Positions 41,908 through 51,576 of a DNA stretch of 64,000 nt are shown piece by piece. This DNA is from Lysobacterales bacterium (lineage in GTDB: Bacteria; Pseudomonadota; Gammaproteobacteria; Xanthomonadales; SZUA-36). Numbering within the stretch: position 1 is the first letter of the stretch; every line of letters begins with the position of its first letter. The position numbers were made by a program, and so were the translations under genes. The notes under the pieces are model-generated. The model did no database searches and was not told the DNA's origin. It saw nothing but the letters and a program-made list of their open reading frames with translations. The stretch is taken from assembly GCA_021648125.1 (NCBI GenBank), contig JAKITK010000009.1, positions 1 to 64,000 of the forward strand, written 5' to 3'.

Positions 41908-42063
41908 AAATTTAACCTGTTTTTGCGCTTCTCAGAAAACTCAAACTCGTGTTTCCGCCTTGAAAGGGCAACATCCCAGCCACTTGATGAGTGCAAAAGG
42001 TCAACCATCTACTGGTTTTCACCTTTGCGGTGGTATTGTGGATATAGTACGCATGATAAACTA

Positions 42064-42231
42064 ATACCTAGATCCTGCAAGTGATCGTGCTTAGGCAGTG
42101 CAAGATATTGATTTGTAGAGTGAATGATAACTTTGAGTGGGATCCTCATTGTGATTGCCGAAAAGTTTCATTTGCTATACGGATCAAGAGCTTGTGCTGA
42201 GTGAGTGTGAGCACTTGCAGGATTTAGGTAA
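42064..42231. repeat. Palindromic element upstream of pcnB, imperfect arms of about 20 bp
   Basis: The left arm ATACCTAGATCCTGCAAGTG (42064-42083) pairs with CACTTGCAGGATTTAGGTAA (42212-42231), 18 of 20 bases complementary. The 168-nt unit has no ORF. It differs in sequence from the other palindromes in this window and fills most of the 392-bp gap between fdxA and pcnB. Nothing else is recognisable in that gap. Confidence 0.7.
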
Positions 42232-42299
42232 TACCTAATTGAATTAAACCTAATGTTCTTCGGGGCGAGGGTTTCGCTCTAATAAATGGAAAAACAAAT

Positions 42300-43613: not shown

Positions 43614-44127
43614 AATTTCACTGGTTTATCTTGGTCTTGGTGGAAACTTAGGCGATGTTGCAAAGCACTTTGAACATGCCCAGCAGGCGCTTGACAGTCA
43701 CCCCAAGATTACTGTGTTGCGTACATCTTCTCAATACATCAGTAAAGCCTGGGGCGGGGGAGTGGTTGATGTATCAGCGCAAAATGACTACCTGAACCAG
43801 GTTATTGAACTCGAAACTTCAGTATCGACAGAGAATTTGTTGCGTTTCAGCCAACAGCTAGAGCGGGAGGCCGGGCGCAATCCACAGGCGCAACGCTGGG
43901 CCGCACGCACACTGGATATCGATATTTTGCTTTATGGGCAGCAGCTGCAATGCACTTCAGTGCTTGAACTGCCGCATCCGCGAATGTTGCTGCGGGCCTT
44001 TGTATTAAAACCTTTAGCAGAGTTAAGCCCTGAGCTACAGATACCGGGAGCTGGCCAGGTTTTAGCGGCGTTGCAGGCATTAAGCCCAACAGAGCGAAAC
44101 AACACACAGCGGTTTGCGGTGGTTTAG
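43606..44127 (+). CDS. folK: HPPK, 2-amino-4-hydroxy-6-hydroxymethyldihydropteridine pyrophosphokinase
   Basis: The 173-residue protein starts MAEISLVYLGLGGNLG inside the pcnB end. HPPK motifs are GLGGNLGD, 'AQNDYLNQVIELET' and the catalytic 'RWAARTLDIDILLYG' (Arg, Asp-x-Asp), then 'LELPHPRMLLRAFVLKPLAEL'. It makes a folate precursor diphosphate. In pseudomonads panB, panC, panD and pgi follow; here an accessory block follows and pgi comes 7.8 kb later. A 45-bp piece of folK 3' sequence recurs at 51532-51576. Confidence 0.95.
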   Translation: MAEISLVYLGLGGNLGDVAKHFEHAQQALDSHPKITVLRTSSQYISKAWGGGVVDVSAQNDYLNQVIELETSVSTENLLRFSQQLEREAGRNPQAQRWAARTLDIDILLYGQQLQCTSVLELPHPRMLLRAFVLKPLAELSPELQIPGAGQVLAALQALSPTERNNTQRFAVV

Positions 44128-44191: not shown

Positions 44192-44359
44192 CTATTCAAA
44201 TACCCCCGGCACAACTCCATCAGCCTCAAACAGCACCGAATTTTTCAGTGCCGCCTATGACATACTCTCATGGGTGGGGGTCTCATAAGCCAAGCCAGTA
44301 ACGGGCAGTACTACTAGGGCAGAAAACACGATAGCTATTGCGCAATTTTTATATTCCAT
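44192..44359 (-). pseudogene. Third, broken copy of the phospholipase C-like gene (B3)
   Basis: From ATG 44359 the frame reads MEYKNCAIAIVFSAL... through a signal peptide to ETPTHESMS and then meets TAG at 44255-44257. The same frame continues AALKNSVLFEADGV, identical to the intact copy at 46293-47033, and then diverges and stops at 44192. It is therefore a nonsense-mutated and truncated copy. Its start overlaps the end of gene A3 by 25 nt, as in the other copies. Confidence 0.9.
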
Positions 44360-45198
44360 TCTTTAAATACCTCAAAATAGCTTAAATCAACACCGCACTG
44401 CTGCATGCTCTTGGGGTTTTGAATAATGACAAATTTTATTTTGGAGAGAAAATACACTTCATCACCATCAATATATGCAGCCGGGTATTTGTTGGGGTTG
44501 CGGTGATCAAATGTAGCCGCAATTGCATTCGGAATATTTGCCCATAGACAGTTATCATAGCGTAGCGCCTCTGTAACAAACCACCACAAAGTCGCCTTAG
44601 CATCTCGTTGGTGGTAATCAGTATCTATCTCAACTAACTCCACACTGATATCATTCCATTGTGAGCCCCGTATAATAGCCGGTTTAAATGATCCTTTTTT
44701 CTTGGGGTGAGTTCGCCTCAACCAACTCAACTTAAAAGAATTGGTACGCAGCCCCTCCTTGTAAAAGTCCACCATCGGCTCTCCCTTCTGCATCCTCCGC
44801 AGTAGTGGGTAAACATAAAAAAACCCGGGGAAATGATAACGCCCGTCCGCATCAGTCACCGACTCCATTGCATTGATAAAGGTGATCCGGTCAGTGGCAG
44901 CTAGGGACATCCGGTAATTTTCTCTCCATTTAGCAGTAACCAGCACACCCTCAATCGGTTGGCCCGCTTCATCAACCACCCTGCCATCAATATCCTCGAC
45001 AATAACAAACCAGGGATAAGCAACCCAGATGCTTGCCAGCAGTGCCACCCAAAGCCATTTACGCACCTTTGTGGGCTTCCATCTGGAGCTCCATGCAATT
45101 ACCGTTATCAGAAGCCAGCTAGCCAATATGGGCAGCATCCAAACCATCAATAGAATATAAATAGCGAAGGTAAGACTAACGAGCAGGTTTATCTCCAT
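44335..45198 (-). CDS. Module gene A3: membrane protein with carboxypeptidase-regulatory-like domain
   Basis: The 287-residue protein has two hydrophobic N-terminal segments (about 8-36), a third at about 48-66 ending in 'YPWFVIVEDIDG', and then 'GRVVDEAGQPIEGVLVTAKW', the opening of a CarboxypepD_reg-like beta sandwich. A further domain ends EWNIKIAQ. It is about as long as A1 and A2 but more diverged from them than they are from each other. The extracytoplasmic domain is probably exposed to the periplasm. Function is unknown; pairing with an exported enzyme suggests a chaperone, anchor or immunity role. Confidence 0.72.
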   Translation of the reverse strand: MEINLLVSLTFAIYILLMVWMLPILASWLLITVIAWSSRWKPTKVRKWLWVALLASIWVAYPWFVIVEDIDGRVVDEAGQPIEGVLVTAKWRENYRMSLAATDRITFINAMESVTDADGRYHFPGFFYVYPLLRRMQKGEPMVDFYKEGLRTNSFKLSWLRRTHPKKKGSFKPAIIRGSQWNDISVELVEIDTDYHQRDAKATLWWFVTEALRYDNCLWANIPNAIAATFDHRNPNKYPAAYIDGDEVYFLSKIKFVIIQNPKSMQQCGVDLSYFEVFKEWNIKIAQ

Positions 45199-45464
45199 AA
45201 CTGCATACTCTGATTGGAAAAATGAAATAAATTAGTTTGGTTGTCGAGGCTTTGGCTACTAACTCTAAAATTAGTATCGTGGGTAATAAACTTAGCATTA
45301 CTGAATTCAGCAATACCCTGGCCAAAATTACGCAACCGCACAGATGTATTTAATGTAAACATAAATATTCCCTTATGAACAGGTAACCTATAAGCCAAGC
45401 CTTCGGTAGGCGATGTTATTGTCGCAAACAACACTATTTCTCTGGTAAGATTTTTATATTCCAT
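45189..45464 (-). CDS. Module gene B2: truncated or scrambled phospholipase-like protein
   Basis: The 91-residue ORF starts MEYKNLTREIVLFATITSPTEGLAYRLPVHKG. Its start, signal-peptide size and AY motif parallel B1, but the rest (residues 35-91) has no similarity to the enzyme and lacks its His residues. It appears to be a deletion remnant joined to other DNA. Its start lies inside the end of A2 and its stop overlaps the start of A3 by 10 nt. Probably not a working enzyme. Confidence 0.6.
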   Translation of the reverse strand: MEYKNLTREIVLFATITSPTEGLAYRLPVHKGIFMFTLNTSVRLRNFGQGIAEFSNAKFITHDTNFRVSSQSLDNQTNLFHFSNQSMQLWR

Positions 45465-46279
45465 TCACTCAATCCTTTAAAAAAACCAATATCTACGCCA
45501 CACTTCTCCATGTTCCTAGGTAATGAGTGCCTACCAAACTTTACTGTATCTTCAGAGATCTGTATGCCCCGCTTAACAGTCTTATACTCACGGGTAATTG
45601 CAACGGGAATATTTGCCCACATGCAGTTATCGTTATCTTCGCTCAACACACTCTTAACGAACCCCCACAGAGTCCCGCTATTCCCAGAGCCATTGTCTGT
45701 CTTAACCATCACCACATCAAGGCCATTCAACAGTGATTTTCGGACAATACTGCCCCTAAGAGAAAACTTACCTTTCCAATACTTGTACTTGCTCAAGTTA
45801 TAATCGACTCGCAGGTTCTCTTGGTAGAACCTTACTTTCGGCTGGCCTGACATCAGCTTTTGATTAAAAGATGGGAGGTAGGTAAATCCGTAAATATGAT
45901 AACGCCCATCTTTATCGGTCACAGCTTCTCTTGCTTGGGCAGCATAGGAGCTTCCAGAAAAAATGGATGTGACCCGGATTATTGGCTCATACTCCCAAAG
46001 CGCAGTTATCAGTATTCCTTCTATGGGTTGACCAGTTACATCAACAACCCTACCTTCAATATCTTCAACAATGCTAAACCAAGGATAGGTAATCAAAATG
46101 CTTGCTAACAGAATGATCCAGAGCCATTTATGTTTCTTTTTCAGCTTCCAGCCAAAATGCTTTGTCAGCATAAATATTAATAGCTGGGCAACCAGTATAG
46201 GTAATGCTAAAACCCAGAGATAATACGCAATGATAAAAGGTATTAGGTAAATTAGTAAAAAAATATCCAAAATATTCAT
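45434..46279 (-). CDS. Module gene A2: membrane protein with carboxypeptidase-regulatory-like domain
   Basis: From ATG 46279, 13 bp behind a GGGAG ribosome site shared with A1, the protein has 281 residues. It has N-terminal membrane helices, 'YPWFSIVEDIEGRVVDVTGQPIEGILITALW' (split here: helix end, then the beta-sandwich opening), and a C-terminal part ending 'LSEWNIKILPEK'. Bases 45488-45669 inside it are nearly identical to 47057-47235 in A1, pointing to recent duplication or gene conversion. No catalytic motif is seen. Confidence 0.75.
   Translation of the reverse strand: MNILDIFLLIYLIPFIIAYYLWVLALPILVAQLLIFMLTKHFGWKLKKKHKWLWIILLASILITYPWFSIVEDIEGRVVDVTGQPIEGILITALWEYEPIIRVTSIFSGSSYAAQAREAVTDKDGRYHIYGFTYLPSFNQKLMSGQPKVRFYQENLRVDYNLSKYKYWKGKFSLRGSIVRKSLLNGLDVVMVKTDNGSGNSGTLWGFVKSVLSEDNDNCMWANIPVAITREYKTVKRGIQISEDTVKFGRHSLPRNMEKCGVDIGFFKGLSEWNIKILPEK
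45488..45669 (-). repeat. Near-identical block shared by A2 and A1
   Basis: These about 182 bases match 47057-47235 with only a few changes and a 3-nt length difference. The block covers the C-terminal coding part of genes A2 and A1. The flanking parts of the two genes are much less alike, so the match looks like a recent recombination or gene-conversion tract. Confidence 0.92.
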
Positions 46280-46292
46280 AACTACATACTCC

Positions 46293-47033
46293 CTATTCGC
46301 TAAACGCTGGAATTGATGCCTCAATTTGCGACATCGTAGTTAGCTCATCTATCCAATTAGAATACTTTTCATAAGCGCTGGTTTCTGCGCTTAACACTGG
46401 TAGATGTGGATCATCGCGCACATGCTGTGGTTGGGCCATGTCTTGTATATGGTGTATGGCTTGACCGAGAATCCGGAAAAGGCTGCCAAAATATTCTTCA
46501 CGGGTGGTTTTATTCTCAGAGATCAGGGCTAGACGAAAGCTCTGGTTGCCATCTCGCATTAATGCATCACTGCGGTTGGCTATCAACTCTCCATCCTTAT
46601 CGACACCATATAGAGCCCAATTGGGAGAGCTAAAGTTGTACCAACTCGGGCACAGAATAGGTCTTAGTGGCTTCTTTTTTACTGGATCAAAAAAATGCGA
46701 ACAAACCCACAAAGTATTTTCGTGATCTTCATATGCTGAACCCATGCGTATATGGCCGATAACATTTCGTTGATTTTCATCGTTTTTATCCAGGAAGAAA
46801 TCATGAAATCTTTTGTTTCCATCTACTGGATCATCCTCCTCATCATCCTTTATATCGTTTGGCACGACTATACCTAGCTCCTTGAGAACCCCATCAGCCT
46901 CAAACAGCACCGAATTTTTCAGTGCCGCCTCTGACATCATCTCATGGGTAGGGGTCTCATAAGCCAAGCCAGTAACGGGCAGTACTGCCAGGGCAGAAAA
47001 CGCTATAGCTATTGCACAATTTTTATATTCCAT
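46293..47033 (-). CDS. Module gene B1: secreted phospholipase C/P1-nuclease-like protein
   Basis: The 246-residue protein has a signal peptide (cleavage near GLAYE, residue about 25) and then PTHEMMSEAAL. A 'TLWVCSHFFDPVKKKPLRP' segment and the cluster 'RILGQAIHHIQDMAQPQHVRDDPHLP' follow, with several His and Asp residues in the spacing of zinc-dependent phospholipase C/S1-P1 nucleases. Relatives continue well past this cluster; here the protein stops soon after YEKYSNW, at the junction with A2, so it may be C-terminally shortened. The start ATG lies inside the end of A1 (25-nt overlap). The zinc fold is inferred. Confidence 0.72.
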   Translation of the reverse strand: MEYKNCAIAIAFSALAVLPVTGLAYETPTHEMMSEAALKNSVLFEADGVLKELGIVVPNDIKDDEEDDPVDGNKRFHDFFLDKNDENQRNVIGHIRMGSAYEDHENTLWVCSHFFDPVKKKPLRPILCPSWYNFSSPNWALYGVDKDGELIANRSDALMRDGNQSFRLALISENKTTREEYFGSLFRILGQAIHHIQDMAQPQHVRDDPHLPVLSAETSAYEKYSNWIDELTTMSQIEASIPAFSE

Positions 47034-47036
47034 TCA
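46888..47036 (-). repeat. Near-identical block shared by B1 and the B3 pseudogene
   Basis: These about 149 bases, covering the start and signal peptide of B1, match 44213-44361 with about ten changes. The match ends shortly after the DGV codons, marking the point where B3 was truncated. Confidence 0.9.
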
Positions 47037-47854
47037 TCCAGTCCTTCAAAAAAACTAATATCTACGCCACACTTCTCCATGTTCCTAGGTAAGCGCCTAC
47101 CAAACTTTACTGTATCTTCAGAAATCTGTATGCCCCGCTTAACAGTCTTATACTCACGGGTAATTGCAACGGGAATATTTGCCCACATGCAGTTATCGTT
47201 ATCTTCGCTCAACACACTCTTAACGAACCCCCACAAGCCTGCACTGGCTTGTCTCCTGTAGAAATCACTGTCGGCCTCAACCATCACCACATCAAGGCTA
47301 TTCCAACTGCTGCCTCGGAAAATACCCCAATCAAAATCTAGTTCACTTCCCAAAAACTTGCTTAGCCTGTAATCAACCCGCAGACCCTCATGGTAAAATC
47401 TCACATCCGGTTCAAATGGCCATAGTTTTTGATTAAAAGGTGGGAAGTAGGTAAAACCGGAAACCCGAAAACGCCCCTCTTTATCGGTCACAGCTTCTCT
47501 TGCTCCAGCAACACTGCGGCCGTCTACAGAAGCAAAAAGGGGTAAGCTCGGAATTAGTGGGTAATACTCCCAAAGAGCCGTCACCAGCACCCCTTCTATG
47601 GGTTGGCCGGTTGCATCAACAACTCGGCCATCAATATCTTTAATAGTACTGAACCAGGGGTAGGTAATAAAAATGATTGCCAACAGCGCGACCCAGAGCC
47701 ATTTTTGGTTCTTTTCCAGCTTCCAGTTAAAACGATCTGCTGCCTTGAATACCAGCAGCCGGGCAATCAACAGTGGTAATACTATGGCCACGAAAAGATA
47801 CACAAGTACCATAGACAGATACACCAGGCCAATTGGTGAAAAATAATCAAGCAT
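47009..47854 (-). CDS. Module gene A1: membrane protein with carboxypeptidase-regulatory-like domain
   Basis: Starting at ATG 47854, two bases after the stop of the large PKD gene, the protein has 281 residues. It has membrane helices at about 8-36 and 48-65, then 'YPWFSTIKDIDGRVVDATGQ' and 'PIEGVLVTALWEYYP' of the regulatory-like beta sandwich. It ends 'LDEWNIKIVQ'. The sequence GGGAGTATGTAGTTATG before and at its start is also found at A2 and, in altered form, at A3, so the leader was duplicated with the gene. Likely inner-membrane anchored with a periplasmic domain. Confidence 0.75.
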   Translation of the reverse strand: MLDYFSPIGLVYLSMVLVYLFVAIVLPLLIARLLVFKAADRFNWKLEKNQKWLWVALLAIIFITYPWFSTIKDIDGRVVDATGQPIEGVLVTALWEYYPLIPSLPLFASVDGRSVAGAREAVTDKEGRFRVSGFTYFPPFNQKLWPFEPDVRFYHEGLRVDYRLSKFLGSELDFDWGIFRGSSWNSLDVVMVEADSDFYRRQASAGLWGFVKSVLSEDNDNCMWANIPVAITREYKTVKRGIQISEDTVKFGRRLPRNMEKCGVDISFFEGLDEWNIKIVQ

Positions 47855-47856
47855 AA

Positions 47857-50800
47857 CTACATACTCCCTATACGCCAAACGCCATTGCCATCTATTATCA
47901 GGTAGACGAAAAATGCTCGGTCGATACCATCAATATCCCGATTAAGCAGATACTCGCCATAACTCAATTCGATTGCAACTGACTGGAACGATGAATAACT
48001 GGCGATGACATCAGGCATATGTGGTAACAGCAGGTAAAACACTAGGCCATAACTCTCCTCGGTACCTTCAGTTAATAGATACTCTTGAGCCAAGCCCAGG
48101 TTGCCCGCTACCAGCGCCGCATTCATACCGCTCCATACTTGCTGCATCAACTGATCAAGCTGGGCTTCGGTTTCTATCCCCACCACCAGCTCGTGGCGGT
48201 AACTGTTCCCGTCCAGATCCACAACGGTGATTACCGGCAGGTGAATATCTGGTTGGATGTACTCATGGCTGATGGCTTGGGTAAAGTTGCTTTCAATGGT
48301 TTCATCAATGCTGCCATTACCATCAAAGTCCAGTTCAATGCGCTCAATATTGGTTTGGTTTAGATCAATAATATTGAACTTAGTGGTTGCCGGGGCAAAG
48401 GCATGGCCAGGGTCTGCATAGGCGAGGAATAGATCTTGGGTGCCACCGGTAACCGTTATAGTTTCAGTCAACTGCTTTCTGCTCAGTGATGTCGCAATTA
48501 CGCTGATCTCCTGGCTACCAGATTCAAGCGGTATCATTACCGCAAATTCGCTGCCATAGGGATCGCCGCCTAGGCGGGCGACAATGCCATTGACGGTAAT
48601 ACCGGTATTGGGCGGTGCGCTTAGGGTGCCGGTTACCCGCAACCTGCCGCTATTGTGGGTTGCCCCCTCCAGTGGTGAGGTAATGGTTAGCACTGGGACT
48701 GCATTCAAGCTAGGGTCATTGGGGTACCAGTCACTGTCGTTATCGGTACCATCGCCATCTCGGTCGGCATCGGCATTATCACCAATACCATCACCATCAA
48801 AGTCGTAGGCCTCATCACTATCATTCGGAAATAAATCATTTTCATCAGCAATGCCATCGCCGTCAATATCGCCATCGGTAATATCGGGTTGTACGGTGAC
48901 TGTAGTTGAGGCCGTACTGCTCAGCCCCTGATTATCGGTTACCGTTAGCTCAAAGATAAGTATGGTATCGGCACCAACGGCTGGGGTGATGATATTGGTG
49001 AGCGCGGCATTGGGATTTTCAATAGAGGCTAGCGGCCCCTGGGTCTGTTGCCATTGATATTGGCTAATAGTGCCATCGGGGTCGCTACTGCCGCTACCAT
49101 CAAGCTGACCTAGGGTTAGCTCCAACAGGGTTTGAGGCGGGCCGGCATTGGCAATTGGGGGGAAGACAGGGGTTATGGTTATACTAATGGGGTCGGCATC
49201 TAGAATTGTCTGTACACCAAACGGATACGCTATCCGCACAAAGGCGAGTACAATTTCAGTTGTTTGGCTAACCTCAGGCGCAATAAAGCTAGTGTTCCAG
49301 GCGGCTTGGTCTTCAATACTGATAGCTGGGCCGGTTAACTGTACCCACCGGTATAGTCCAGTCGGTAAATTGGTTGATAAATACTCTGCGTTCAGGCTGA
49401 CCACTTCTCCTGGGGCGGCTAGCAAGTCTTCGCCGATGTCCAAGTTTTGCGCTTGGTGGGTGCGTGAAACCATCCAGAGATTGGTAGATCCAGTCTTGCT
49501 AAGACCGTCCCTATCAGTTACCGTTAATTTAAGCCCTATTCCTGCAAGCCCTGCAACTTGTGGCAAAGTAATCATCGGGGTGAGCATAGTCGAATCTGAA
49601 AATGTGACGGCTGGGCCGTAATATTGCTCCCATTGGTGCTGATCAATAAAGCTGTCAGGGTCATAGCTATATATTCCACTGACCTGGTTGCTTGTTCCTT
49701 CAAGCATGAGTATGTTTTCTCGGTCAAAAACTACTTGGGGACTGGAGTTTACATAACCGATATATCTGCGGTTGAAATCAGCTTTGCTGGCACCTTGGTC
49801 GTCGGTTGCCACCAGTAGAAATATATGCTCGTGCATAAGTTGCTGGCCATTTGCCGGGCCGTAATATGGTGCAAACACAAACTTAGCATTCAATTTATCA
49901 CTATCAATTAAATCTGTAGCAACAGGGCCTGAAACCTGGTACCACTGGGTACTGACAATACTGCCATCGGGATCTGATGCCGTGCCATTGAGGTTATATT
50001 CATCATCCATGTGCCAGTAGCTAACGCCAACACTGGAATGAGTACCAGCGTCCACCACAGGCGGTTGATTACCGTTTTGCGGTCTGTCAGGTACGGTGAC
50101 GGTTACCTCATCGGATGCTGTGGCTCCGGTATTGTCGGTGACGGTAAGCCGAAATAGGTAAACTCCAGCATTTGTAAAAGAGCCGTAATACAGTGGGTCA
50201 GGGCCGATCTCATCGCGTCTGGCAAAACCTCCAGGGCTAGAAAGCGTTTCCCAGTAATATTCAACAATACTACCATCGGGGTCATAACTGGCACTACCAT
50301 CCAAATGCAGCATTCGCGGTGCCAGCGACACATGATCAACACCAGCATTGGCAATGGGCGGTAGACTATCACCACTGCCTGGCTCGACAATGGTAAGTAT
50401 TACCGTATCAGTAGAGCTACTCCCAAACCAATCTGTAATAGTAACTTCAAAGACCAGGATTTCACCGGCTTGCACAGGTGTAACTTCTATGTGGCGATGG
50501 TTTTCACCATAGCGAATAATCGCCGGGCTTCCCTCAAGTTGTTGCCACTGAAAGCGTAACTCAAGAAAATTTCCTGGTTGAAGCCCGCTCACAACACCCC
50601 TGAGGATCACGCTGTCTCCACGAGCCACCACCTGATCTGTACCCGCAAAGACTATTGGAGGAATGTATTCAAGAATGCTAATCGTGACCTCATCGCTGGC
50701 TGTTGCGCCATCGTTATCGGTAACAGTCAGGCGCATGACGGCATCGGTATCAGCATCCACAGGCGGCAGATGCAGAGCAGGTGAGCGAGAGTTTATACCG

Positions 50801-51063
50801 TAAGTAGGATCGGGAAAGCCGATAGTAGGGCCAGATAGCTGCTGCCACTGGTACTGGCTAATAGTGCCATCTGGGTCACTACTGTTGTTAGCATTAAGCT
50901 GGCCTTGAGTGCCCTCCAACAGGATTCGGTCTGGGCCGGCATTTGCTATTGGGGGTATGTTTTCAGGCGCTAGCGTTTCAAAACCATCGGTAAAAATTAA
51001 GTTAGAGCTTAGCCCCAATCCCCAGGTAGAGGCGCGAAATGATGTGTATGATATTGGTTTCAC
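47857..51063 (-). CDS. Large PKD/Ig-like and thrombospondin-3 surface protein (main part of an interrupted gene)
   Basis: The 1068-residue ORF is the downstream part of a gene whose first 64 or so codons lie beyond an inserted element (51013-51168). It contains about seven PKD-like domains (recurrent PPIANAG, DPDGTISQYQWQQ), then calcium-binding type-3 repeats ('DGDGIADENDLFPND', 'DFDGDGIGDNADADRDGDG'), a further Ig-like domain and a helical C-terminal domain. Its own first codons come from the inserted element. As it stands the product lacks a signal peptide. The restored protein would have about 1115 residues. It heads the A/B module operon. Confidence 0.85.
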   Translation of the reverse strand: MKPISYTSFRASTWGLGLSSNLIFTDGFETLAPENIPPIANAGPDRILLEGTQGQLNANNSSDPDGTISQYQWQQLSGPTIGFPDPTYGINSRSPALHLPPVDADTDAVMRLTVTDNDGATASDEVTISILEYIPPIVFAGTDQVVARGDSVILRGVVSGLQPGNFLELRFQWQQLEGSPAIIRYGENHRHIEVTPVQAGEILVFEVTITDWFGSSSTDTVILTIVEPGSGDSLPPIANAGVDHVSLAPRMLHLDGSASYDPDGSIVEYYWETLSSPGGFARRDEIGPDPLYYGSFTNAGVYLFRLTVTDNTGATASDEVTVTVPDRPQNGNQPPVVDAGTHSSVGVSYWHMDDEYNLNGTASDPDGSIVSTQWYQVSGPVATDLIDSDKLNAKFVFAPYYGPANGQQLMHEHIFLLVATDDQGASKADFNRRYIGYVNSSPQVVFDRENILMLEGTSNQVSGIYSYDPDSFIDQHQWEQYYGPAVTFSDSTMLTPMITLPQVAGLAGIGLKLTVTDRDGLSKTGSTNLWMVSRTHQAQNLDIGEDLLAAPGEVVSLNAEYLSTNLPTGLYRWVQLTGPAISIEDQAAWNTSFIAPEVSQTTEIVLAFVRIAYPFGVQTILDADPISITITPVFPPIANAGPPQTLLELTLGQLDGSGSSDPDGTISQYQWQQTQGPLASIENPNAALTNIITPAVGADTILIFELTVTDNQGLSSTASTTVTVQPDITDGDIDGDGIADENDLFPNDSDEAYDFDGDGIGDNADADRDGDGTDNDSDWYPNDPSLNAVPVLTITSPLEGATHNSGRLRVTGTLSAPPNTGITVNGIVARLGGDPYGSEFAVMIPLESGSQEISVIATSLSRKQLTETITVTGGTQDLFLAYADPGHAFAPATTKFNIIDLNQTNIERIELDFDGNGSIDETIESNFTQAISHEYIQPDIHLPVITVVDLDGNSYRHELVVGIETEAQLDQLMQQVWSGMNAALVAGNLGLAQEYLLTEGTEESYGLVFYLLLPHMPDVIASYSSFQSVAIELSYGEYLLNRDIDGIDRAFFVYLIIDGNGVWRIGSM
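51005..51012 (+). repeat. 8-bp target-site duplication, left copy
   Basis: GAGCTTAG here is repeated exactly at 51169-51176, immediately outside both ends of the palindromic element at 51013-51168, as expected for transposition with 8-bp staggered cuts. Confidence 0.85.
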
Positions 51064-51168
51064 AGTGAAATAGAAAATATGAGTCGCACCCGTAGGTTCG
51101 GCGGTTATTTTTTGTTTTGCTGTGGAATCAAGAGCATGTGCAGCATCCGTGTTTCTATCTGGGGATTG
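51013..51168 (+). mobile_element. 156-nt palindromic MITE-like element inserted in the PKD-protein gene
   Basis: The ends are inverted repeats (CCCCAATCCCCAG at the left, CTGGGGATTG at the right, arms about 16-18 bp with small differences). It is flanked by the direct repeat GAGCTTAG. It has no transposase gene. A 65-nt internal-deletion form with the same ends is at 24073-24137. Deleting the element and one duplication copy (164 nt) joins the ORFs 51105-51368 and 47857-51063 in the same frame. The family of transposase that moves it is unknown. Confidence 0.88.
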
Positions 51169-51368
51169 GAGCTTAGTGTCCCGATTGTATTCTGTGGTTT
51201 AAGCCTGCCGATACTATCGAACGGAACCAGAGTAACTGCTGCTGTGGTGGTTGGGTTAGGGGTAGTGTCTGTAGCAAATATAACCTCAGCATTAACCGCG
51301 CCTGACAGAACTGTGGCCAGCAATATTAAACTGCCTTTGCTGATTTTTCCGTAAATGGAATCACGCAT
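51105..51368 (-). pseudogene. 5' part (signal peptide) of the interrupted PKD-protein gene
   Basis: The ORF opens with MRDSIYGKISKGSLILLATVLSGAVNA, a clear signal peptide with an AxA cleavage site, and then a mature start 'EVIFATDTTPNPTTTAAV'. After 'NTIGTLSS' it runs into the inserted element and stops at 51105. Without the element the frame continues into 'NLIFTDGFETLAPEN' and the PKD domains. The N-terminal fragment alone would be an exported 60-residue peptide. Confidence 0.88.
51169..51176 (+). repeat. 8-bp target-site duplication, right copy
   Basis: GAGCTTAG, identical to 51005-51012. Both copies sit in the same codon phase of the interrupted gene (CTA AGC TC on the minus strand). Confidence 0.85.
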
Positions 51369-51531: not shown

Positions 51532-51576
51532 CCTTTCGCAGAGCTAAGCTCTGAGTTACAAATACCGGGAGCTGGC
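51532..51576 (+). pseudogene. folK 3' fragment (15 codons)
   Basis: Forty of 45 bases match 44011-44055 of folK in the same orientation, and the translation AELSSELQIPGAG parallels AELSPELQIPGAG there. Most differences are at third codon positions, so the fragment descends from a folK gene of a related lineage rather than being a fresh copy. It lies between the accessory block and pgi, so the block is bracketed by two folK 3' segments. Confidence 0.75.

What the first reader, a model, noticed from the sequence alone, without database searches (positions are those of the whole stretch)
44192..51368. Three-fold repeated two-gene module behind a large PKD surface protein, with preserved A genes and decaying B genes
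Genes A (membrane, carboxypeptidase-regulatory-like domain) and B (exported phospholipase C/P1-nuclease-like) alternate A1-B1-A2-B2-A3-B3. A1, A2 and A3 are all full-length (281-287 residues). B1 may be shortened, B2 is a scrambled 91-residue remnant and B3 has a stop codon and truncation. Each B start codon lies inside the end of its A. Keeping A while losing B is what is expected if A protects against, anchors or chaperones B, as in immunity arrays or lipase-foldase pairs. I know of no described system with this layout. The membrane/zinc-enzyme assignments and the protective role are inference; gene order, overlaps and decay are read from sequence.
Basis: partly seen in the sequence, partly recalled or inferred. 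Interest (0 to 1): 0.85.

Follow-up and report, generated by a model that had tools for sequence, protein, structure and literature searches.

The report
Immunity-like gene array outliving its enzyme
A row of three intact envelope-protein genes survives in this bacterium although the large exported enzyme once encoded behind each of them has been deleted three separate times, and similar rows in other bacteria suggest that these genes are protective partners of a previously unnamed, exchangeable secreted enzyme.

Summary
The layout is real. On the minus strand the order is P (PKD/Ig protein), A1, B1, A2, B2, A3, B3. All three A are open (281, 281, 287 aa). All three B are remnants, B1 included: another locus of the genome (contig C93) has P-A-B with a B of 963 aa. 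B1, B2 and B3 arose by three different internal deletions, each sparing A. P-X-B recurs sporadically in Gammaproteobacteria; X (the slot of A) is predicted to be an envelope protein. X occurs twice or more at 8 of 26 compiled loci; B remnants lie in the array at 5 of 26. B carries nine putative metal-site residues like those of zinc phospholipase C and S1/P1 nuclease; its N-terminal half (BN) matches one solved phospholipase C. A co-varies with BN, not with the C-terminal half BC, and X type follows the BN tree better than the BC tree. Best reading: X-BN is an exchangeable effector-immunity-like cassette, the mirror image of CDI/Rhs modules (partner upstream, variable half N-terminal), and the window holds partner genes kept after effector loss. 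Toxicity, neutralisation and delivery are untested. New variant of a known kind.

The parts
47857..51063 (-). P: PKD/Ig-type protein body (six PKD-type stretches, Glucodextran_B, weak TSP3) ending in the C-terminal domain that precedes X at the other loci
   Evidence: ORF; Pfam; C-terminal alignment
51105..51368 (-). ORF with probable signal peptide, in another frame than P: probably the detached 5' end of P
   Evidence: inference
47009..47854 (-). A1, 281 aa, two hydrophobic N-terminal segments + carboxypeptidase-regulatory-like domain
46293..47033 (-). B1 stub, 246 aa: B residues 1-229 with all nine putative metal-site residues, then 20 nt of inner B, then the P-tail junction
   Evidence: residue set defined
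46277..46307 (-). relic of the P 3' end in front of A2 (94% to 47852-47882)
45434..46279 (-). A2, 281 aa
45526..45669 (-). tract 99% identical to 47092-47235 in A1 (gene conversion)
45189..45464 (-). B2 remnant, 91 aa: start of B + piece matching B4 residues 285-312 + P-tail scrap (about 45195-45210)
44335..45198 (-). A3, 287 aa, the most divergent copy (44-46% protein identity to A1 and A2)
44192..44359 (-). B3 remnant: B codons 1-49 with an internal TAG, joined to the last 8 codons of B
44011..44055 (+). 3' part of folK; a partial copy lies beyond the array
51532..51576 (+). relic of the folK 3' part (89%), right border of the stretch between folK and pgi

Best explanation
P-X-B is an effector-immunity-like locus. 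B is exported (Sec-type signal; mature Tyr1, His6) and carries in its N-terminal half (BN) a zinc-hydrolase domain of the phospholipase C/S1-P1 nuclease kind, followed by a C-terminal half (BC). X is a membrane protein or lipoprotein encoded just upstream of B, which binds or blocks BN at the producer's envelope. P is the surface or carrier component. X and BN are exchanged together as a cassette against existing BC and P. Duplicated or displaced cassettes stay in a row between P and the working B. There B is lost by internal deletion while X is kept, because siblings or neighbours may still release the matching B. In the window this has gone to the end: three X (A1-A3), no B, probably a broken P, while the genome still has one complete P-A-B at C93. 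Shown: gene order, remnants, deletion joints, open A frames, co-variation, residue pattern. Inferred: export, enzyme activity, toxicity, protection, delivery.
For: Intact paralogue P-A-B in the same genome. Three different deletions each sparing A. Of 26 compiled loci, X is present two or more times at 8 and B remnants lie in the array at 5 (window, L099, L100, L145/L103, L112; one search shows B scraps between A copies). Of 38 X proteins scanned, 38 have a hydrophobic segment typical of a membrane anchor or a lipobox. X is not one family: A-type at 20 loci, small proteins with three hydrophobic segments at 5, another lipoprotein at 1. A co-varies with BN given P (partial rank correlation 0.47, reached by 1 of 2000 permutations) and given BC (0.64, 0 of 2000), but not with BC given P (-0.02); A with P given BN is 0.08 although P is equally close to A. 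X type needs 3 changes on the BN tree (0 of 200 shuffles as low) and 5 on the BC tree (51 of 200). Two chimeras: L041/L068 (BN windows 36-70% identical, BC 74-92%, X unrelated) and L144/L103 (BN 12-52%, BC 68-96%, A 27%). A1 and A2 against the C93 copy have dN/dS 0.76 and 0.53 (A3 0.45), against 0.40 for BN and 0.23 for the P tail. Of the nine putative metal-site residues six are kept in 23 of 23 B, one is Asp in 22 and Glu in 1, two are kept in 22 of 23. The BN profile finds one PDB sequence, 8cqm_A 'Phospholipase C', E 1.2e-5.
Against: No toxicity, binding or secretion data. The best single stretch of the 8cqm match has only E 0.0028, and 1 of 23 BN matches Pfam Zn_dep_PLPC, at E 0.042. No delivery-system domain was recognised in the P and B tested. 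X copies are not always intact: the first A of L100 is frameshifted and A of L148 is cut short. The co-variation rests on 15 loci with A identities averaging 20%; without three G497 loci it falls to 0.33 (24 of 1000 permutations). BN and A are adjacent, so linkage adds to the signal. The trees are quick ones with long branches. Unlike X families in front of B that are 69% identical (L041/L068) could also mean that X is not B-specific. In 13 genomes searched with the lipoprotein-A profile no clear orphan X away from a P-X-B locus was found; the weak candidates are G478 C1:2522979 and, with the window's A profile, G039 C1:793549, E 2.3e-4, with no B beside it.
Confidence: 0.55

Rival explanations
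1. X is a dedicated export chaperone, activator or membrane anchor of B (as the lipase foldase is for its lipase), and B is a secreted nutritional phospholipase or nuclease, not a weapon.
For: X is predicted to be envelope-anchored, lies next to B with short overlaps or gaps and co-varies with BN, as a cognate chaperone would.
Against: Does not explain keeping three A with no local B, or three A for one B (L105), or the unrelated families filling the X slot, or the raised dN/dS of A.
Confidence: 0.2
2. The row is a by-product of unequal crossing-over between P-A-B copies; A copies survive by chance or recent origin and no selection on extra A is needed.
For: L103 shows a tandem P-tail+A+BN unit with 98-99% identity and identical A, so units do amplify. 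Some A are broken (L100, L148).
Against: A1-A3 differ from each other at 25-44% of bases yet are open; in a substitution-only null 44 of 2000 A1 copies stayed open at 12% change and 4 of 2000 at 22%. dN/dS of A pairs is 0.23-0.76 where dS is not saturated. The deletions in the window all spare A.
Confidence: 0.15
3. A is the working product (for example an envelope sensor or adhesin paired with P) and copy number raises its dose or variety, B being dispensable.
For: P and A remain where B is gone; A copies diversify.
Against: Among B-bearing loci A co-varies with BN and hardly with P; a match to P's whole C-terminal domain was found only in genomes that also have B (10 of 10, with a profile built from P genes beside B).
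Confidence: 0.1

Closest known systems
CDI (cdiA-CT/cdiI) and Rhs orphan modules (PMC3150448, passages read)
   Same: Exchangeable enzyme-domain + partner cassettes; rows of fragments of the big gene each with a small partner gene; the larger part of the protein conserved.
   Different: There the variable part is C-terminal, the immunity gene downstream and orphans follow the full gene. Here the variable half is N-terminal, the partner upstream, and remnants precede the full gene.
Polyimmunity loci and Tox-HET-C of polymorphic toxins (PMC3482391, passages read)
   Same: Tandem immunity genes; Tox-HET-C is a toxin domain predicted there to share fold and active site with zinc phospholipase C and S1-P1 nuclease.
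   Different: Polyimmunity loci are said there never to be interrupted by toxin genes; here B remnants lie between A genes. No RHS, HINT, LXG or filamentous-haemagglutinin part was seen by Pfam in the P and B tested.
esaG/tsaI/tipC immunity strings of type VII secretion (PMC9484751, abstract and outline read)
   Same: Strings of non-identical paralogous immunity genes, for esaG and tipC shaped by recombination through conserved blocks, like the 97-100% tract shared by A1 and A2.
   Different: Another phylum and secretion type; the abstract mentions no enzyme-gene remnants between the genes.
Zinc-dependent phospholipase C / S1-P1 nuclease superfamily
   Same: Residue pattern and profile similarity to 8cqm_A.
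   Different: B adds several hundred C-terminal residues and lies below Pfam's cut-off.

Membership tests
Zinc phospholipase C / S1-P1 nuclease superfamily | N-terminal residue of the mature protein plus His/Asp/Glu set that binds three zinc ions | tested here: met
   (L041 numbering): H24, D134, H161, H264, H274, H280 in 23 of 23 (E133 too); position 268 Asp in 22, Glu in 1; Y19 and E301 in 22 of 23. Sequence pattern only; metal binding not shown. The reference spacings (P1: W1, H6; HxxxDxxxxxH in P1 and PLC) are recalled.
Zinc phospholipase C / S1-P1 nuclease superfamily | Profile similarity to a member | tested here: met
   only PDB hit 8cqm_A Phospholipase C, whole-sequence E 1.2e-5, best stretch E 0.0028. 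Against: no member of 23 reaches Pfam's cut-off, 1 matches Zn_dep_PLPC at E 0.042.
Zinc phospholipase C / S1-P1 nuclease superfamily | Predicted fold | tested here: inconclusive
   B1 model from one sequence, pLDDT 35; no fold search was run.
CDI/Rhs-type polymorphic toxin locus | Variable domain recombined against a conserved rest of the protein | tested here: met
   two BN/BC chimeras and differing trees.
CDI/Rhs-type polymorphic toxin locus | Variable toxin domain C-terminal, immunity gene downstream | tested here: not met
   X lies upstream of B and A co-varies with the N-terminal half.
CDI/Rhs-type polymorphic toxin locus | Known trafficking or repeat domains (RHS, FHA, PAAR/VgrG, LXG) | tested here: not met
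   Pfam on P of three loci (window, C93, L036) and full B of three (C93, L041, L036), and BN of 23: none of the list. P shows PKD/Ig and Glucodextran_B. Other loci not scanned.
CDI/Rhs-type polymorphic toxin locus | Toxicity and neutralisation by the cognate partner | not testable with these tools
   Bench test needed.
Polyimmunity locus (as described in PMC3482391) | Tandem immunity genes never interrupted by toxin genes | tested here: not met
   B remnants between A genes in the window, L099, L100, L103 and L112. L105 has three A with none seen, which would fit.
Lipase-specific foldase pair | Foldase sequence family | tested here: not met
   No such family for the A proteins scanned in Pfam or NCBIfam.

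The most novel reading that the evidence does not exclude
An undescribed family of exchangeable effector-immunity loci in Gammaproteobacteria with mirror-image design: partner gene upstream, variable zinc-hydrolase half at the N-terminus, conserved C-terminal half; displaced partner+BN cassettes are stored upstream, and partner genes outlive their enzymes, as in this window.
Probability: 0.45. Interest if true: 0.75.

Novelty: new variant of a known kind. Interest (0 to 1): 0.62.

Why it matters
If right, it adds a family of exported zinc hydrolases with their own changeable protective partners, reverses the usual order of polymorphic toxin modules, and gives arrays in which immunity retention after toxin loss can be read joint by joint. 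It makes a direct test possible: does each A protect against its own BN and not against others?

Tried and rejected
Recalled idea that P-like proteins precede Rhs genes: not supported here. The P profile matched 44 of 274 genomes, most only in its Ig part; a match to the end of the C-terminal domain occurred in 10, all 10 also with B. Of six further P contigs fetched, four show A then B (L144, L145, L146, L147; one B cut by the contig end, one a 151-aa stub) and two end within or just after A (L143, L148). Scans of genome contigs: none, one unrelated multi-domain protein. The A profile in the order gave 3 of 398 genomes, ourselves and two weak ones. Plasmids: no match for B of C93, one record for B of L101. 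Phages, with B of L041: none. Viral contigs, B profile: none. PADLOC (6 proteins) and PHROGs (4 proteins): none. Structure models of A (pLDDT 41) and B1 (35) were too poor, so no fold search was run. A phylum-wide sample of 125 genomes, class-mates included, gave BN matches in 4 including our own; the other three are weak core matches (E 1.4e-4 to 2.2e-4). Remnants of B between the small membrane genes of L060 and L068: nothing convincing. Literature: searches listed no paper on this locus (two listed none at all); only listings with abstract beginnings were seen, plus the passages or outline named under Closest known systems.

Rows dropped and merged: L145 and L103 share a 121-nt identical end and are counted as one array, which gives 26 loci (27 contigs). 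Not among the 26: L040 and L066 (degenerate) and L065, L106, L107, L108, L109, L143, L148 (cut or incomplete). The co-variation test used 15 of 20 A-type loci (left out: window, L035, L038, L145/L103, L146, because P or B is missing, cut or broken). The trees used 23 B; L035, L038, L066, L106, L108, L145 and L146 were left out as cut or broken, while L103 and L109 stayed in although they fill under half of the BC columns. The hydropathy scan left out the frameshifted first A of L100 and one of the two identical A of L103. L035, L036, L038, L041 and L064 were called A-type by eye; X of L036 and L041 has no Pfam hit. X start codons were in part chosen by me.
Full report
What is there. On the minus strand, between folK and pgi, the window holds P (51063-47857), A1 (47854-47009), B1 (47033-46293), A2 (46279-45434), B2 (45464-45189), A3 (45198-44335) and B3 (44359-44192). 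The A genes are repeats of each other and are open. A carries hydrophobic N-terminal segments and a carboxypeptidase-regulatory-like domain below Pfam's cut-off (24-27 bits against 32.3).

The B genes are remnants. The same genome holds an intact copy on contig C93: P 495 aa, A 289 aa from the first start codon, B 963 aa. Against it, B1 is residues 1-229, then 20 nt of inner B, then the last ~24 nt of P in front of A2. B2 is the start of B, a piece matching residues 285-312 and a scrap of P tail. B3 is codons 1-49 with a TAG, joined to the last eight codons of B. These are three different internal deletions that remove the body of B and leave A. The P-tail scraps in front of A2 and A3 suggest that P-A-B units once stood in tandem. 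P itself may be damaged: its probable signal peptide lies in another frame (inference).

Insertion. In G002, of the same genus, pcnB, folK and pgi follow each other with about 0.5 kb between folK and pgi; in the window the gap is 7.8 kb and a 45-nt relic of the folK end (89%) lies on the far side. In G001, also of the genus, pcnB and folK are adjacent but no pgi was found in the roughly 4 kb fetched beyond them, so the neighbourhood varies. The array was inserted here or lost from G002; the folK relic favours insertion.

Distribution. A4 was found in 1 of 61 genomes (ourselves), B4 in 2 of 61 (G002 with a C-terminal piece at a contig end). More distant B occur in 13 of 398 genomes of the order and 13 of 360 of the class, ourselves included in both; some of these are fragments. 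One order-mate contig has the length and match place of the plasmid record NZ_CP035703.1 of Pseudolysobacter antarcticus, order Lysobacterales, Gammaproteobacteria. I compiled 26 loci with P (or its tail) and B (or its remnant) together. Each has an X gene between them: A-type in 20, small proteins with three hydrophobic segments in 5 (L060, L061, L063, L067, L068), another lipoprotein in 1 (L062). X occurs two or more times in 8 of 26: window 3, L060 3, L068 3, L099 2, L100 3 (the first frameshifted), L145/L103 3, L105 3, L112 2. B remnants lie in the array in 5 of 26: window, L099, L100, L145/L103, L112.

B as an enzyme. Among 23 long B, H24, E133, D134, H161, H264, H274 and H280 are invariant (L041 numbering), position 268 is Asp in 22 and Glu in 1, and Y19 and E301 are kept in 22. 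With the signal peptide cut where expected, Tyr is residue 1 and His residue 6, the spacing of S1/P1 nuclease (recalled). A profile of the N-terminal half BN finds one PDB sequence, 8cqm_A, Phospholipase C, E 1.2e-5 over the whole sequence (best single stretch 0.0028), with the HFY-P and HxxxDxxxxxH blocks aligned. B1 still has the whole residue set.

A goes with the N-terminal half of B. Across 15 A-type loci, A identity correlates with BN given P (0.47; 1 of 2000 permutations as high) and given BC (0.64; 0 of 2000), but not with BC given P (-0.02). The control for closeness: A with P given BN is 0.08, and with BN thinned to 180 columns the means are 0.42 (A-BN) and 0.16 (A-P). Without the three G497 loci the A-BN value drops to 0.33 (24 of 1000). 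On quick trees of 23 B, X type needs 3 changes on BN (0 of 200 shuffles as low) and 5 on BC (51 of 200). Two direct chimeras: L041/L068 in one genome, with unrelated X and BN less alike than BC; L144/L103 in another, with BC largely the same and BN and A unlike. So X+BN appears to move as a unit.

Selection on A. A1-A2-A4 pairs have dN/dS 0.53-0.76 and pairs with A3 0.29-0.45; BN (B1-B4) has 0.40 and the P tail 0.23. Extra A copies elsewhere have 0.23-0.39 where dS is not saturated. Under substitution only, 44 of 2000 copies of A1 stay open at 12% change and 4 of 2000 at 22%. A1 and A2 share a 97-100% stretch near the 3' end amid 47-82% before it, a mark of gene conversion; the very end is also constrained by the overlap with the start of B.

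How it works, most likely. B is an exported zinc hydrolase used against other cells; X sits in the envelope and blocks BN; X-BN cassettes are exchanged; old X are kept while their B decays. This is the logic of orphan CDI/Rhs modules (PMC3150448) and polyimmunity loci (PMC3482391), turned round: partner upstream and variable half N-terminal. It fails the defining order of CDI/Rhs and the 'never interrupted' rule of polyimmunity loci, so I file it as a variant, not a member. What is not shown: export, activity, harm, binding, delivery. A dedicated chaperone or anchor for a nutritional enzyme remains possible.

Limits. Most genomes are drafts and unnamed, contigs often end in these loci, L103's identical units may be collapsed or inflated by assembly, A identities average 20%, and the structure models were unusable.

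Noticed in passing
L034 (G000:C34) 1353-2996: A third P-type gene of the same genome whose end runs in frame into a sequence like the 204-aa exported ORF that follows B on C93 (L008 5909-6523): probably a recombination product that removed A and B.
   Followed up: partly
L147 4369-5828 and L146 2591-3224: Genes that look by eye like an AbiE-type pair and a HEPN-MNT pair lie beside P-A-B loci of G497, one of them where B is cut to 151 aa; G497 holds at least five P-A-B loci.
   Followed up: no
L145 3435-3555 and the start of L103 (reverse strand): 121 identical nt join these two contigs into one array of three A and two B stubs in front of a B cut by the contig end.
   Followed up: yes
L100 4879-5485: The first A of this three-A array is frameshifted: an exception to the intact-A pattern.
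   Followed up: yes
L019 1396-2319 (G039 C1:793549-793851): A 307-aa protein with a weak match to the window's A profile (E 2.3e-4) and no B beside it; possibly a solitary A-like gene or just a shared domain.
   Followed up: partly
L040 10659-12437; L148 1782-2012: Transposase-like genes (by eye) interrupt a P-X-B locus (L040) and lie beside a truncated A (L148).
   Followed up: no
window 42062-42233: A 73-nt inverted repeat, 71% complementary, with 26 nt between the arms, between the genes at 41.9 and 42.3 kb.
   Followed up: no
L066 (G162:C1, 17196 bases; record NZ_CP035703.1): A decayed P-X-B copy on a small plasmid of Pseudolysobacter antarcticus, hinting at lateral transfer.
   Followed up: partly
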